Assembly (NCBI GenBank): GCA_016234985.1
Contig: JACRNK010000063.1
Coordinates: 1 to 8,439, forward strand
Source: Deltaproteobacteria bacterium
Lineage (GTDB): Bacteria > Desulfobacterota > GWC2-55-46 > UBA9637
Direction of reading: 5' to 3'
Length of the DNA stretch: 8,439 nt
Positions within the stretch are counted from its first letter, which is position 1. The number at the start of each line of letters is the position of its first letter. The position numbers and the translations under genes are program-made. Below the pieces are notes generated by a model. That model saw only the letters and a program-made list of their open reading frames with translations. It had not been told where the DNA came from and did not search any database. Below are positions 3,203-8,439 of this stretch, in pieces.

Positions 3203-4092
3203 CACCTATAACCTGTTTTTATTATCTCCATACTAATATCCACAGCCCTTGCTGAATGTGTCAATGCCCCGACTGAAATAAAGTCAACGCCAGTCTTTGC
3301 TATTTCTCTGACATTTTTTAGATTAACACCGCCTGATGCCTCTATAAGAGTTGCAAGTTGCAAGTTGCAAGTTGCGAGTATAAGAGAAACTGCCTTTTTC
3401 ATTTGCGATATTGTCATATTGTCCAGCATGATTATATCAACCCTGCACTCCACTGCCTCTTTCAGTTCCTTGAAATTTTTAACCTCAACCTCAATCTTTT
3501 TATTTGGGGCATTTTTTCTTGCCAGTGCAATGGCATTCTTTATTCCGTGTGCTGCTGCAATGTGATTGTCTTTAATGAGTATAGCGTCATAAAGACCAAA
3601 CCTGTGATTAAAGCCGCCGCCACATCGGACAGCATATTTTTCAAGGATTCTTAAACCGGGTGTTGTTTTTCTGGTATCTAAAATCTTTACATCATAACCT
3701 TTTACTTTCGCTGCAAACTGATGCGTTAATGTCGCAATGCCTGAAAGTCTTTGCAAAAAATTAAGCGCAACCCGCTCGCCTGTAAGAAGTGTTTTTAGAC
3801 TGCCTTTTATTTCTGCAATGCACTGCCCTTTTTTTATTTTTTCACCATCTTTTACAAGAGGCTTAAAAACTGCCTTCTTGTCCAATTGCATGAAAACCTC
3901 TTTTGCAGCAAAAAGCCCTGAAACAATAAGGTTCTCCTTTGCGATGATTACTGCAGCGCCAACAACCTCTCCCCTTGCGGGAGAGGGATGGGGTGAGGGG
4001 ATAATCGCATTCGTAGTCAAATCCCCTGTGCCAATGTCTTCTAAAAGGGCGGTTTTGATTATGTTTTGAATTTTGTTGCGAGATAGTTTCAC
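3202..4092 (-). CDS. nadC: Nicotinate-nucleotide pyrophosphorylase (quinolinate phosphoribosyltransferase)
   Basis: Converts quinolinate and PRPP to nicotinate mononucleotide and CO2 in de novo NAD synthesis; cytoplasmic. At 296 aa it is slightly longer than usual. Visible motifs are EDIGTGDLTT (18-27), GERVALNFLQRLSGIAT (105-121), DTRKTTPGLR (139-148), the NHRFGLYDAILIKDNHI segment with catalytic basic residues, and EASGGVNL near the C-terminus. The start is a GTG with no recognisable Shine-Dalgarno box (the preceding bases are a T run), so initiation may be weak. Two segments look like repeat insertions kept in frame: PSPHPSPARGE (about 32-42) and ATCNLQLATL (239-248). Both fall next to conserved motifs but leave the catalytic residues intact, so the enzyme is probably active. 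First gene of the nadC-birA-ftsK run. Confidence 0.93.
   Translation of the reverse strand: MKLSRNKIQNIIKTALLEDIGTGDLTTNAIIPSPHPSPARGEVVGAAVIIAKENLIVSGLFAAKEVFMQLDKKAVFKPLVKDGEKIKKGQCIAEIKGSLKTLLTGERVALNFLQRLSGIATLTHQFAAKVKGYDVKILDTRKTTPGLRILEKYAVRCGGGFNHRFGLYDAILIKDNHIAAAHGIKNAIALARKNAPNKKIEVEVKNFKELKEAVECRVDIIMLDNMTISQMKKAVSLILATCNLQLATLIEASGGVNLKNVREIAKTGVDFISVGALTHSARAVDISMEIIKTGYR
3349..3376. repeat. Heptanucleotide tandem array inside nadC
   Basis: Four head-to-tail copies of AGTTGCA on the plus strand, the last ending in G instead of A. It encodes NadC residues about 239-248, between the helix MKKAVSLI and the conserved EASGG strand, where most NadC proteins have a much shorter link. 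Confidence 0.88.
3965..4000. repeat. 36-nt G/C-rich hairpin repeat inserted in the nadC frame
   Basis: The plus strand holds CCTCTCCC (3966-3973), a 5-nt loop and GGGAGAGG (3979-3986), a perfect 8-bp stem, followed by a GATGGGGTGAGGGG tail. This resembles a dispersed repeat usually seen between genes in many environmental genomes (from memory, not searched). Here it encodes PSPHPSPARGE of NadC; 36 nt is 12 codons, so the frame is kept. Confidence 0.72.
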
Positions 4093-4587: not shown

Positions 4588-5474
4588 CTATTTTGTTTTC
4601 AGGAAAAGCGTAGTTTCCGATATCAATTGACTTCGGTTTCTCTCGTATAGAACCCAGTGGGTGGCATCTTTAATGATTATTTCCTTCTTCCAGCCGGCGC
4701 CGCTCAGCTTGCCAAATAAGGTGGGATCGGCAAAAAGGTCTGCATCTCCTCTTATCACGAGAACATGGGCTTTGATCTTGCCGGCATCAAAGACCGGTTT
4801 GTTGCTCCAGATGTAGTAAAGATCTACGAGCGGGCCCACAGGACGGCGGATGGAATTGGGTTGACGGCTTCCGCTGGTTGGATCAGACTCCATAAATACC
4901 TTAGCCACAGCTTCAAATGCCTCTTTGCGAGCCAGTTCATGGCCGTCCATCATTGTGTGCCAGTGATGCAGAATCATCTCAAAGGTTGCCAGTTGGTAAG
5001 CAGGGAGTTTGGAATTGAGAGCCCCCGGTCTTTCCTCAAGAGGCTCAACCATGGACGGCAGGTTAAAGCCGTGCATCGCCCCGTATAAAACCAATTTGTT
5101 AACCTTTTCAGGGTGTCCGGCAGCATACATGCCGGCTGCAACAGCGCCCCATGACCAGCCGATGATATTTACTCTGTCAATCTTTCTCGTCTTCCTGATG
5201 TATTCAACAGCAGCTTCCACATCCTTGATAGCCTCTGTTGCCCTTACAACAGGAGGATTTTCATGAGGAGGTTTTTCCATGGCCGCCGGCATGGTGGACT
5301 TGCCAAACCCCCTGAAATCCAGAGCCCACACATCATATCCCTCTTTGGCCAGATCCTCCATCCATGAATAACCCGGCACTCGCCTGACTCAGCAGGAGAC
5401 CGTGCAAATAAACTCAAACAAATTGCAGCAATGACGGTAAAAACCAACCAATGCAGCCTGACAGTTTTGTCCAT
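4588..5474 (-). pseudogene. Exported alpha/beta hydrolase, disrupted by internal deletion and frameshift
   Basis: The gene opens at an ATG at 5474, 10 nt after the tusA-like stop, with a signal peptide (MDKTVRLHW, then VFTVIAAICLSLF). After SPAES the frame turns into nonsense. The hydrolase body is in another frame from about 5379 (a GTG) and runs 263 codons to 4588. It has WALDFRGFGKS, a nucleophile elbow GWSWG (Ser76), an acid candidate in GDADLF (Asp212/214) and a histidine in ATHWVLYE (His241), so the whole triad survives. The first beta strands and the HG oxyanion motif expected between signal peptide and PGYSWMEDLAKEGYDVW are absent, an estimated 60-70 residues. A TGA just upstream blocks frame extension. 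Most likely a pseudogene; a sequencing or assembly error, or a short cytoplasmic product from the GTG, are alternatives. The substrate is unknown. Confidence 0.75.
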
Positions 5475-5484
5475 TATGCTCAAG

Positions 5485-5734: not shown

Positions 5735-6193
5735 TCATTTTCCTCCAATTATGCGGCCAAAGCTCAAAACCAGACTGACCAACCCGGCCCCTATTAAAAG
5801 ACCTGCGGGCAGACCTCTGAAAAAGAGAACCCCGATAAGTGTCCCTATAAGGACTGCAAAGAAGCTCTGTGGGCTGGCCTGGATATAGGCCACCCCCTTC
5901 CCACCTACATAAGAACTGACAATGCCGCAACCTACAGTATAAAATCCAAGGGGGCTTTTAAAAAAATTCCAGACATCTATAAACCCGCTCTTCTCATACA
6001 TAAGGGGACTCAGAAGGAATAGCATCAAGAAAAAAAGCCCTACATTCAACCCGTGCCTGTTTACCACAACCACGGCATCTGTCCTGAGAAGTCCTAAAAG
6101 CAGAAGGACAGCGCTGGCAGAGGCAAGCGTGTAATCCCTCAAGGCAAGGCTCAATGCCGCGATGATGAGCAGGGCGATGATTCCTTCAGACAT
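5735..6193 (-). CDS. DUF441 (YeaL-type) small integral membrane protein
   Basis: A 152-aa protein made almost entirely of hydrophobic segments: GIIALLIIAALSLAL near the N-terminus, ASASAVLLLLGLL, NVGLFFLMLFLLSPL, then a glycine-rich GFYTVGCGIVSSYVGGKGV part, FFAVLIGTLIGVLFF and a final GLLIGAGLVSLVLSF segment. Length, spacing and the SPLGFY...GKGV...P.....L.IGTLIGV.FF.G.P.GPLI-like pattern match the DUF441/YeaL family, which has no established function. The ATG at 6193 is chosen because AGGAGG (6198-6203) sits 4 nt upstream and overlaps the stop of the preceding ThiF-B gene; the frame continues ten codons further upstream but only inside that gene. Its last codons contain the tusA-like ribosome site, so the two are probably translated together. 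A transporter or anchoring role for the operon is speculation. Confidence 0.83.
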   Translation of the reverse strand: MSEGIIALLIIAALSLALRDYTLASASAVLLLLGLLRTDAVVVVNRHGLNVGLFFLMLFLLSPLMYEKSGFIDVWNFFKSPLGFYTVGCGIVSSYVGGKGVAYIQASPQSFFAVLIGTLIGVLFFRGLPAGLLIGAGLVSLVLSFGRIIGGK

Positions 6194-6201
6194 TCCTCCT
6201 C

Positions 6202-7095
6202 CTATAGTCTTGTGTTGTCCCATCGCCCTGCTTCAGGCGTCTCCACCTTCACCATCTCAGGCTTTGAAAGGTCCACCCTTACAATGGCAGGCGCCTTCAC
6301 AGGCTGGAGCTGAGGCCGGTTCAGGAGAACCTTCATGGCCTCGAAGCTGGCTAATATGCCCACAATATTTGCCATCGGGGATATCACTGTCCACGGGACC
6401 TTCCCTTCTATATACTCCTTTGCCCATCTTGCCATAGATTTTTGATTGATTGAATCAGAGAGTGTGACAGAATAGCGGGCCCTCTCATTTTTTATCTCCA
6501 GTATCTCCCGCTTTATGTCATCTGTGAGATCCCTTCCACGGGAAGGCTGGCTAAGCGCCTCCTCCATGGACATGGAATCGGGCGTGAATGTCATCACCCC
6601 GCCTCTAAAAGGAGGGGTTACAGCAATCCAGATGGAAGGGATTCCCAGGTCCCTTGCAGCGCGATGGATGATGATGCGGGCTACAAGGTTGTCTGTGCAG
6701 TCGATGATGACATCCGTGCCGGCCAGCAGTTCCTTTGAGTTCTCCTCTGTCAGATACTGCGTTGTGACCCTTGAATTTATCTTTGGATTTATGTCCTTGA
6801 GCGCCTCCGCAGCCACCATGGCCTTTGAGCGGCCTATATGGGCGATGGAACAGAGCATCTGCCTTGTCAGATTGCTGACCTCAAATGCATCCCCATCTAT
6901 AAGATGCATATCCTGGATGCCCAATCTGGCGCACTGGATAGCTGCGATCCCGCCTACTCCTCCGAGTCCCACAATAGCGACCTTGCTCCTGTTCAGCTTT
7001 ATCCCCTCGTCCACTGTGAGGATGCCGATGTTTGTTGCTGCGCAAAAACCTATGGTAGCCGGATTGGCTGTTTTATTGGCTGTTTGGGTCTCCAT
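6202..7095 (-). CDS. E1-like ThiF/MoeB/HesA-family protein, paralogue B
   Basis: A 297-aa protein with the Rossmann-type adenylating fold: glycine loop GLGGVGG (43-49), acidic strand end DGD (67-69), SNLTRQ (74-79), a lysine at 91 and DCTDN (132-136), matching MoeB positions that bind ATP and Mg. It should activate a carboxylate, classically the C-terminus of a small ubiquitin-like or peptide substrate. Odd points: no zinc CxxC pairs, no cysteine where ThiF or MoeB carry the catalytic one (the segment reads WIAVTPPFRGG), and threonine 21 where MoeB and paralogue A have the arginine given across the dimer. The C-terminus is GRWDNTRL. The start is the ATG at 7095 with a strong AGGAGG (7103-7108) 7 nt upstream; the longer open frame to 7257 is repeat sequence. 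Next gene is 8 nt away. The substrate is unknown. Confidence 0.88.
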   Translation of the reverse strand: METQTANKTANPATIGFCAATNIGILTVDEGIKLNRSKVAIVGLGGVGGIAAIQCARLGIQDMHLIDGDAFEVSNLTRQMLCSIAHIGRSKAMVAAEALKDINPKINSRVTTQYLTEENSKELLAGTDVIIDCTDNLVARIIIHRAARDLGIPSIWIAVTPPFRGGVMTFTPDSMSMEEALSQPSRGRDLTDDIKREILEIKNERARYSVTLSDSINQKSMARWAKEYIEGKVPWTVISPMANIVGILASFEAMKVLLNRPQLQPVKAPAIVRVDLSKPEMVKVETPEAGRWDNTRL

Positions 7096-7102
7096 AAAAA
7101 AA

Positions 7103-7108
7103 CCTCCT
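7103..7108 (-). promoter_or_regulatory. Ribosome binding site that fixes the ThiF-B start
   Basis: AGGAGG on the minus strand, 7 nt before the ATG at 7095 across a pure T run. It shows that the open frame continuing to 7257 is not part of the protein. Confidence 0.8.
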
Positions 7109-7129
7109 ATTTTGTTTTCATTTGCTCCG

Positions 7130-7200
7130 AAAATCTCCCCTAACCCCTCTTTTCCAAAGAGGGGAACTTGAGCTTTCCCCCTTTGACAAAGGGGGATTTT
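7130..7200. repeat. Double-hairpin palindromic repeat in the ThiF-A/ThiF-B spacer
   Basis: Two perfect hairpins side by side: CCCCTCTTT (7144-7152) with AAAGAGGGG (7156-7164), and TCCCCCTTTG (7176-7185) with CAAAGGGGGA (7187-7196). The outer bases (AAAATCTCCCC at 7130-7140 and GGGGGATTTT at 7191-7200) are also complementary with one bulge, so the whole unit is palindromic. It looks like the dispersed 'CCCCCTTTG..CAAAGGGGG' repeats common in some environmental bacterial genomes (recollection, not searched). It may attenuate or stabilise the transcript between the two E1 genes. The remaining spacer bases (7096-7129 and 7201-7231) hold only the ribosome site. Confidence 0.8.
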
Positions 7201-7231
7201 TTCATTGGTATCTATATTCGCCCTTAAAGGG

Positions 7232-8080
7232 CTACAGTGTCGCATAATCCCATCCACCTGCCGGCGGCTCAGAGATAGTTACAGGCGGACTTGATGAGAG
7301 GTCAATGATAATCCCCTTTGGGGCGCGGGCCAGGGGATCCCTCCCTGTAAGTACTTGCACCGCCTCATGGAAGCTGAAGAGGGACAACAGGTGTGCCCTG
7401 ACAGGGGTGATGATCCAGCCATCCTTTCCGTCGCAATAATCCTGCGCCCACTGGGCCGGGGCCCCTAATTTGACCGAATGCCACGCCCTCTTCTTTTTGA
7501 TATCTGCAATCTGTTGTCTTAGTTCCATGTCTGTGAGCTTCTTCCCCATGCCAGGGAGGTTCAATGCCTTCTCATAAGGAACGCCTGTTGGGAGGAATGT
7601 TGAAACAAAACCCCTGGTCGGGGGGCTCCCTGACATTCCTATGCTCGGAATGCCGAGTTCTCTGGCTGTCCTGTGGATTATCACCCGCGTAGGCATATCA
7701 TCTACAGCCTCCATAACTATATCGTTACCTTTTATCAATTCTACAACATTATCCTCATCCACAGCCGCATGTATTACATTTACCCCCATGAACGGATTTA
7801 TCTCTTTCAACGTCTTTTTTGCAACATCGGCCTTCGGGTGTCCAAGAACCGTTGTAGAGGCCAGCATCTGGCGGTTTATGTTGGATATCTCAAATGTATC
7901 CTTATCAACGCATGTTACATGCCCGACTCCCATCCTCGCGCACAGTATGGCCTCATAACCGCCTACGCCGCCGAGGCCGCAAATAACAACCTTCGCCTTT
8001 CTGAGCCTCTCCTGTTCTTCCCATGAGTAAACCCCGATATTCCTCTTTACCATCTCACTATAAAAAAGGTCCTGGTTCAT
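7232..8080 (-). CDS. E1-like ThiF/MoeB/HesA-family protein, paralogue A
   Basis: A 282-aa member of the same E1-like superfamily and clearly a paralogue of the next gene; shared blocks include IIHRxAR(E/D)LGIPSI, LTD, a WAxxYxxGKxxW segment and a C-terminal GxWDxxxL (here GGWDYATL). Adenylation residues are present: GLGGVGG (35-41), DKD (59-61), SNINRQ (66-71), Lys83 and Asp127. Arg13 in VKRNIGVYSWEEQ aligns with the MoeB arginine that reaches into the partner's ATP site; paralogue B lacks it. No CxxC zinc motif, and the usual catalytic cysteine position reads GMSGSPPTRG. The start ATG (8080) overlaps the cupin stop as TGATG, with a purine-rich GGGAGAGG stretch upstream; a GTG at 8083 is the alternative. 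It likely acts in the cytoplasm with its paralogue, possibly as a heterodimer (inference). The substrate is unknown. Confidence 0.88.
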   Translation of the reverse strand: MNQDLFYSEMVKRNIGVYSWEEQERLRKAKVVICGLGGVGGYEAILCARMGVGHVTCVDKDTFEISNINRQMLASTTVLGHPKADVAKKTLKEINPFMGVNVIHAAVDEDNVVELIKGNDIVMEAVDDMPTRVIIHRTARELGIPSIGMSGSPPTRGFVSTFLPTGVPYEKALNLPGMGKKLTDMELRQQIADIKKKRAWHSVKLGAPAQWAQDYCDGKDGWIITPVRAHLLSLFSFHEAVQVLTGRDPLARAPKGIIIDLSSSPPVTISEPPAGGWDYATL

Positions 8081-8439
8081 CACACCCCCCTCTCCCTGTC
8101 GAGGCTTTCCTCGTAATTCCCTCTGAGCACAGTATGGATGAAGTAGCCGCTCCCCTCAATCAACCTGTAAGAGTGAACTACCCCCTTTGGTATAAATACA
8201 GTAGACGGGGAGCTGACGATATGCGTCTCGCCGTCAAGCGTCACCTCTGCCTTCAACCCTCCCATGTCATTTTCATCCGAAAAGAAGAGATAGACGCTGC
8301 TGACATTGTGAGCGTGGGAATCCACATACTTCGGCTGATCCAATTTGACTCCTGACGCCTTTCTCACCATGATGTAACAATCGGATTCCGGCAGCATCTT
8401 CTCTTCAATGAATACCCGCCTAACCCCCGGCGCATCATC
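8080..8439 (-). CDS. Cupin-domain protein (partial, 5' end outside window)
   Basis: The frame is open to the window edge (119 codons visible), so the true start lies upstream; the internal ATG at 8397 is not a credible start because the preceding residues DDAPGVRRVFIEEK are continuous with it. The visible part is one cupin beta-barrel domain: SHAHNVSSVYLFF with a metal-binding HxH pair, then VFIPKGVVHSY with the PxGxxH histidine, followed by a final strand GYFIHTVLRG. Such a domain could be a metal-dependent enzyme or a small-molecule sensor; nothing here decides which. The canonical glutamate of motif 1 is not obvious in the usual spacing. Its stop overlaps the ThiF-A start, so the two genes should be translated together and probably serve the same pathway. 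Confidence 0.82.
   Translation of the reverse strand, partial: DDAPGVRRVFIEEKMLPESDCYIMVRKASGVKLDQPKYVDSHAHNVSSVYLFFSDENDMGGLKAEVTLDGETHIVSSPSTVFIPKGVVHSYRLIEGSGYFIHTVLRGNYEESLDRERGV

What the first reader, a model, noticed from the sequence alone, without database searches (positions are those of the whole stretch)
6202..8080. Paired E1-like paralogues that look like an asymmetric heterodimer
Both proteins keep the E1 glycine loop, NxxRQ-type motif, lysine and aspartate. Aligned over their N-termini (19 residues from Arg13 or Thr21 to the first beta strand in both), A has the arginine that MoeB donates to the partner's ATP site and B has threonine. In a heterodimer only the B nucleotide site would receive an arginine, as in eukaryotic split E1 enzymes where one subunit is catalytic. 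Neither has zinc CxxC pairs or the usual catalytic cysteine, so adenylation without E1-thioester chemistry is likely.
Basis: partly seen in the sequence, partly recalled or inferred. Interest (0 to 1): 0.72.

Follow-up and report, generated by a model that had tools for sequence, protein, structure and literature searches.

The report
Paired E1-like enzymes in metabolite operon
Two neighbouring bacterial genes related to the enzymes that switch on ubiquitin sit, in relatives from several phyla, in one conserved operon with a homocitrate-synthase-like enzyme and a cupin, and they likely form a two-part enzyme that would activate a small acid rather than a protein, in a pathway for which the papers searched gave no description.

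Summary
The pair is real. A (7232-8083) and B (6202-7095) are two ThiF/E1-fold paralogues, found side by side in every intact case examined (13 of 14 fetched genomes, the 14th cut by a contig end; 10 of 10, 3 of 3 and 2 of 2 positive genomes in three sampled groups). Both subunits keep the other ATP-site residues checked. One reader claim is wrong: A has a conserved cysteine at about the E1 position (113 of 120 homologues); B has not. That is the firmer asymmetry. The context was missed: relatives carry A-B with a homocitrate-synthase-like enzyme, a cupin, DUF441 and a secreted-looking hydrolase. In 398 Bacilli genomes the cupin occurs in the same 10 genomes as A/B, and as fragments in two more. 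I read it as an E1-like pair that activates a small acid, likely as an A-B heterodimer, with a homocitrate-type acid as predicted substrate. Complex, activity and substrate are untested. The window shows only the cupin; a synthase would lie off the contig.

The parts
8080..8439 (-). Cupin gene, cut by the contig end; homologous to the separate cupin of L009 and to the cupin domain of the synthase-cupin fusions
   Evidence: 57% identity to the L009 cupin, 37% to the cupin part of the L013 fusion
7232..8083 (-). E1-like protein A, 283 aa, cysteine-bearing paralogue
8042..8044 (-). A Arg14, probable arginine-finger position (K 76, R 42, 2 not readable, of 120 homologues)
7433..7435 (-). A Cys217, cysteine near the E1 position, 113 of 120 homologues
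7610..7633 (-). A SGSPPTRG motif (SGSPPxRG in 119 of 120 A homologues)
6202..7095 (-). E1-like protein B, 297 aa from its Met, cysteine-less paralogue
7033..7035 (-). B Thr21 at the finger position (R 104, T 12, A 4 of 120 homologues)
6601..6618 (-). B TPPFRG motif ([VI]TPPFRG in 118 of 120 B homologues)
5735..6193 (-). DUF441 membrane protein, present in 8 of 15 operons read (window included)
   Evidence: PF04284 107.1 bits
5485..5748 (-). TusA-like sulfur carrier; no homologue among the ORFs picked in the 14 related loci
   Evidence: PF01206 51.4 bits
4588..5379 (-). Alpha/beta hydrolase, N-terminally incomplete copy of the operon's hydrolase
   Evidence: 60% to the L013 hydrolase; PF00561
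5244..5483 (-). Signal-peptide-like ORF (by eye) upstream of the hydrolase, in another frame

Best explanation
A and B are neighbouring ThiF/E1-fold proteins that occur together with a homocitrate-synthase-like enzyme and a cupin in related genomes, and they are predicted to be the carboxylate-activating step of a small-molecule pathway, likely working as an asymmetric A-B heterodimer. Shown by sequence: the pairing, the shared operon, intact ATP-site residues in both, a cysteine at about the E1 position in A and not in B. Inferred: the synthase (fused or adjacent to the cupin) makes a homocitrate-type polycarboxylic acid; A and B adenylate one or two of its carboxylates with ATP; A's cysteine may take the acyl group as a thioester, or a sulfur, before release; DUF441 may export the product and the hydrolase act on it outside the cytoplasm. 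The Arg finger is variable and probably does not decide which site works.
For: Pairing: both genes in 13 of 14, 10 of 10 full positives among 398, 3 of 3 among 300, 2 of 2 among 299. Tree: A 99*, A+B 95*, B 66. Operon. Phyletic link: the fusion's cupin in the same 10 of 398 genomes plus fragments in 2 (Fisher 2.7e-18, not corrected for kinship). A, B and cupin fragments lie between the same flanking genes in three genomes. ATP residues intact in both families. Cys in A 113 of 120, none at -8 or -10 in 118 anchored B. No conserved small ORF for a peptide or ubiquitin-like substrate near the operon: 656 ORFs compared, matches only between the closely related L020 and L021. Synthase: nearest solved chain is a homocitrate synthase (6ktq; 330 vs 222 bits for the best isopropylmalate synthase with L123); VR[FL]xxED in 15 of 15. 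A second synthase-cupin in the L015 genome lies beside two ATP-grasp proteins, Asn synthase, methyltransferase and MFS, an independent hint of a building block.
Against: No activity, substrate or complex was tested. Both ATP sites look complete, so two homodimers acting in turn fit as well. A's cysteine is absent in 7 of 120 homologues, and PMC13139853 (passages) says the matching MoeB and ThiF cysteines form no thioester with the adenylated substrate. Only 1 of 5 synthases scanned (NifV-like protein not counted) reaches the NCBIfam homocitrate-synthase cutoff (L009 416.5 vs 413.55; L123 400.1, L127 294, L017 284.6, L013 282.1), and the NifV-like protein lacks the VR[FL] arginine, so that residue does not mark every homocitrate synthase. 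The synthase is not in the window, and the own-genome search found only two more distant relatives, 41% and 35%. In one of the 10 genomes (G498) the cupin match spans a TAG. Among the loci read the hydrolase is not found in L009-L011 and DUF441 not in L016-L021.
Confidence: 0.45

Rival explanations
1. A and B are two separate homodimeric adenylating enzymes that activate two different carboxylates, or two successive intermediates, of the same product, with no A-B complex.
For: The ATP-site residues are intact in both families; ThiF and single-copy Tcd enzymes are homodimers (passages); substrate-side motifs differ (SGSPPxRG vs TPPFRG).
Against: Strict adjacency and joint decay suit a complex better but do not exclude this; distances of A and B co-vary, r 0.65 over 780 row pairs, not corrected for the species tree.
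Confidence: 0.3
2. One reading: a heterodimer in which only the B site works because A donates the arginine and B has threonine.
For: True of the residues in the window and its clade: (R,T) in 5 of 39 contig pairs, and in the window itself and G906.
Against: 104 of 120 B homologues have Arg; the commonest pair is (K,R), 27 of 39; the finger is reported non-essential; the cysteine is on A, not B.
Confidence: 0.08
3. A sulfur-transfer system: A/B make an acyl adenylate that receives sulfur from a TusA-type carrier, giving a thiocarboxylate metabolite.
For: A TusA-like gene lies in the window operon and a sulfate permease beside the L009 operon; A has a Cys near the ThiF/MoeB position.
Against: The window's TusA has no homologue among the ORFs picked in the 14 related loci; no other small gene recurs near the pair.
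Confidence: 0.12
4. A peptide- or protein-modifying system with its substrate encoded elsewhere in the genome.
For: ThiF-like enzymes modify peptides in several RiPP pathways (PMC12250964, outline and three sections read); PaaA is the top Foldseek match of A.
Against: A starts directly with the E1 fold, so no N-terminal recognition domain; no conserved small ORF near the operon; the synthase fits a small acid.
Confidence: 0.1

Closest known systems
Yeast Tcd1-Tcd2 heterodimer (ct6A in tRNA), PMC13139853, passages read
   Same: Two ThiF-fold paralogues; an E1-like pair acting on a small carboxylate on tRNA
   Different: Tcd1 lacks an ATP-coordinating arginine and Tcd2 is held to be the only active site; here both A and B keep theirs. 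The tRNA-binding C-terminal domain is not evident here
ThiF / MoeB
   Different: No zinc CxxC pairs, no recurring ThiS/MoaD-sized gene beside the pair, a [ST]PPxRG motif; below NCBIfam cutoffs
Eukaryotic split E1 (UBA3-APPBP1, SAE2-SAE1)
   Same: Two paralogues with the cysteine on one only; in the commonest (K,R) type the cysteine-less partner has the Arg (roles in split E1 recalled, not looked up)
   Different: The non-catalytic partner of split E1 has lost ATP-site residues (recalled); here neither has. At 283 and 297 aa there is no room for the large extra domains of eukaryotic E1 (recalled)
PaaA (pantocin A)
   Same: Top Foldseek match of A (5ff5, E 5.7e-18); a ThiF-like enzyme in a natural-product pathway
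   Different: PaaA belongs to a ribosomal-peptide pathway; residues 95-240 of A match no ThiF-family chain by sequence
Homocitrate / 2-isopropylmalate synthase family
   Same: HMGL-like barrel with HCS_D2, whole in L009 and partial in the fusions
   Different: In most operons read fused to a cupin in place of the rest of the C-terminal part

Membership tests
ThiF/E1 superfamily (PF00899) | Profile above the Pfam cutoff, E1 fold, ATP-site residues | tested here: met
ThiF / MoeB sulfur-carrier activating enzymes | Zinc site of two CxxC pairs | tested here: not met
   No CxxC in window A or B; 1 of 120 A and 0 of 120 B homologues have one
ThiF / MoeB sulfur-carrier activating enzymes | E1-position cysteine | tested here: inconclusive
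   A: Cys at -10 in 113 of 120 (MoeB, ThiF at -8). B: none at -8 or -10 in 118 anchored, 2 not scored
ThiF / MoeB sulfur-carrier activating enzymes | Ubiquitin-like carrier gene nearby | tested here: inconclusive
   No recurring small ORF near the operon; a carrier elsewhere was not sought
ThiF / MoeB sulfur-carrier activating enzymes | NCBIfam cutoff | tested here: not met
   A: PRK08223 131.7 bits vs 266, thiF 115.1 vs 275.25, MoeB 102.2 vs 266; B likewise below
Split (heterodimeric) E1 | One subunit has lost its ATP-site residues | tested here: not met
   Intact in 39 A and 39 B homologues, apart from Glu for the D62 equivalent in 2 of 39 B
Split (heterodimeric) E1 | E1-position cysteine on one subunit only | tested here: met
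   A yes, B no, by position only; catalysis not tested
Split (heterodimeric) E1 | Physical heterodimer | not testable with these tools
   Single chains only were predicted
RiPP ThiF-like adenylyltransferases | N-terminal peptide-recognition domain before the E1 fold | tested here: not met
   The match to ThiF begins at residue 4 of A and 10 of B
RiPP ThiF-like adenylyltransferases | Precursor peptide gene nearby | tested here: inconclusive
   No conserved small ORF among 656 near the operon; a fast-changing or distant precursor would be missed
Homocitrate synthase (operon partner) | NCBIfam TIGR02146 cutoff 413.55 | tested here: inconclusive
   L009 416.5; L123 400.1; L127 294; L017 284.6; L013 282.1

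The most novel reading that the evidence does not exclude
A bacterial split E1 whose substrate is a small polycarboxylic acid instead of a ubiquitin-like protein: a cysteine-bearing subunit A and a cysteine-less partner B that can lend an arginine, fed by a homocitrate-synthase-cupin enzyme, spread (by record names) over Bacillota, proteobacteria, actinobacteria, Nitrospirae and a cyanobacterium.
Probability: 0.28. Interest if true: 0.8.

Novelty: new variant of a known kind. Interest (0 to 1): 0.58.

Why it matters
E1 enzymes are known mainly for activating ubiquitin-like proteins and a few peptides or tRNA. A constant E1 pair tied to a metabolite operon would extend E1 chemistry to small acids and would give a bacterial case of how one E1 homodimer may split into a cysteine-bearing and a cysteine-less partner. 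The operon is widespread, compact, and now defined well enough to test.

Tried and rejected
Arg/Lys versus Arg/Thr covariation as proof of a shared site: no contig pair lacks Arg in both subunits (27 K,R; 6 R,R; 5 R,T; 1 R,A of 39), but the tree needs only 2 changes in A and 2 in B, and the independent-pairs test had 2 pairs: no statistical support. Contig pairs were taken from equal 'longest contig' lengths, not from the contigs themselves. The trees are quick ones with long-branch warnings. Plasmid-borne copies: 392 plasmid records match, all below 60% identity. Regulatory RNA: 3 Rfam matches in 7 sources, none just before A. Defence-system membership: only partial matches, to the E1 part of E1-E2 profiles, in the 25 of 32 rows shown. 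Literature on the operon: the listings shown gave no description (each shows only part of its hits, save 24 and 86); (AclA) returned 0 papers. The 2009 E1 natural-history paper (recalled) is not among the papers I saw; one search listed papers holding its title words, so prior notice there is not excluded. PMC1779556 was searched for six terms, none found. Not done: the family of G100 (three busy answers).

Full report

Are they a pair? Yes. A search of a very large protein set gave 228 A and 268 B relatives; I worked with the 120 listed of each. A quick tree of 66 rows puts A in one clade (99*), A+B in one clade (95*), B in one clade with weak support (66); several reference rows are long branches. 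In whole genomes: both genes in 13 of 14 genomes behind the fetched loci, the 14th cut by its contig end inside A; 10 of 398 sampled genomes of the class of Brevibacillus porteri (Bacilli) have full A and all 10 have B beside it, and one more has a partial A hit that on reading is an A fragment followed by a B fragment; 3 of 300 and 2 of 299 in two other groups, all with both, one with A cut by the contig end. The searched sets overlap in a few genomes. Of 97 genomes, the window's own and 96 relatives, only its own has the pair, so it is an accessory operon.

The arginine. A has R14 and B T21 at the same distance from the first strand. Among 120 A homologues 76 have Lys, 42 Arg, 2 could not be read; among 120 B homologues 104 have Arg, 12 Thr, 4 Ala. 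Thr marks one clade, the window's (100* in a tree of 40 pairs); G906 belongs to the type by sequence. The finger is also reported non-essential in MoeB and ThiF, and Tcd1 R59A did not significantly lower ct6A in yeast (26% reduction; PMC13139853, passages only). That paper gives the nearest known case: Tcd1 and Tcd2 form a heterodimer held to have one working site, but there Tcd1 lacks an ATP-coordinating arginine. Here both keep theirs.

The cysteine. A's C217 stands 10 residues before the Pro that opens the core helix; MoeB C187 and ThiF C184 stand 8 before theirs; TcdA Cys234 stands 10 before a position that I matched by hand. It is present in 113 of 120 A homologues. In B no Cys lies at -8 or -10 in 118 scored; one has Cys at -7 and four at -15; two were not scored. 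Of the 7 A proteins without it, four are in the tree, all outside the large 24-row A group (support 92); the one with a matched contig partner has Ala at B's finger.

The operon. In the orthologous loci L009-L021, from Bacillota, proteobacterial, Fluviispira and actinobacterial records, A-B lies with a homocitrate-synthase-like enzyme fused to a cupin (11 of 13; in L011 the fusion is on another contig), or, in L009 and in G906, with separate synthase and cupin genes. L022 is cut inside A. DUF441 follows in L009-L015 and the window; a hydrolase lies beside the pair in L012-L021 and the window. By eye the complete copies start with a signal-peptide-like stretch; a lipobox pattern is found in L012, L013 and L014. 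The window's cupin is homologous to both cupin forms. The synthase is expected off the contig; the own-genome search found only two more distant relatives. In the same 398 Bacilli the fusion's cupin is found in the 10 A/B genomes, once with a TAG inside the match, and in two more as fragments with a TAA, which lie between the same flanking genes as the decayed A/B of G218. By equal contig length, 21 of 55 fusion clusters share a contig with a listed A or B cluster.

What it likely does. The closest solved relatives of the synthase are homocitrate synthases, and 15 of 15 checked keep the VR[FL]xxED arginine, which E. coli LeuA (VEF) and the NifV-like protein of the window's genome lack. That this arginine binds the far carboxylate of 2-oxoglutarate is recalled from homocitrate-synthase structures, not looked up, and NifV-type enzymes lacking it are also homocitrate synthases. 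Only 1 of 5 synthases passes the curated cutoff, so the exact acid is open. No conserved small gene near the operon offers a peptide or ubiquitin-like substrate. A second synthase-cupin in Thermoactinomyces mirandus sits with two ATP-grasp proteins, Asn synthase, a methyltransferase and an MFS transporter: the same enzyme type beside a different set of carboxylate-activating enzymes. The simplest reading is that A and B activate carboxylates of this acid. Both share the [ST]PPxRG motif (119 of 120 and 118 of 120), absent from the relatives read at L005 and L006; an arginine there could bind an acid, which is inference.

Confidence. Pairing and operon: high. Adenylation by both: likely. Heterodimer: about even against homodimers. 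Substrate: a guess with some support. Roles of DUF441 and the hydrolase in the pathway: weak.

Noticed in passing
window 4588-5483: The hydrolase copy in the window lacks about 100 N-terminal residues of its relatives; a signal-peptide-like ORF lies just upstream in another frame. Broken gene or assembly fault; longer copies exist in relatives.
   Followed up: partly
window 3205-4092 and G000:C23: The window's NadC-like protein is 80% identical to that of G009 (another family of the order); the genome has a second copy on C23, 64% identical to it, and same-genus copies are 65-66%: the contig may be mis-binned.
   Followed up: partly
L127 (G103:C41): A second homocitrate-synthase-cupin in Thermoactinomyces mirandus with two ATP-grasp proteins, Asn synthase, a haem-oxygenase-like protein, methyltransferase and MFS: an apparent natural-product cluster, no A/B in the stretch read.
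   Followed up: partly
L124, L128, L129: Decayed remnants of the operon (A and B fragments in one, cupin or synthase-cupin fragments in the others) between the same neighbouring genes in three Bacilli genomes.
   Followed up: partly
L126 (G000:C87): A NifV-like gene (434.1 bits vs cutoff 462.9) near genes that look by eye like NifX-type proteins, in the window's genome.
   Followed up: no
L009 4913-6607: A sulfate permease gene directly after the operon's DUF441, and a TusA-like gene inside the window's operon: a possible sulfur link in this clade.
   Followed up: no
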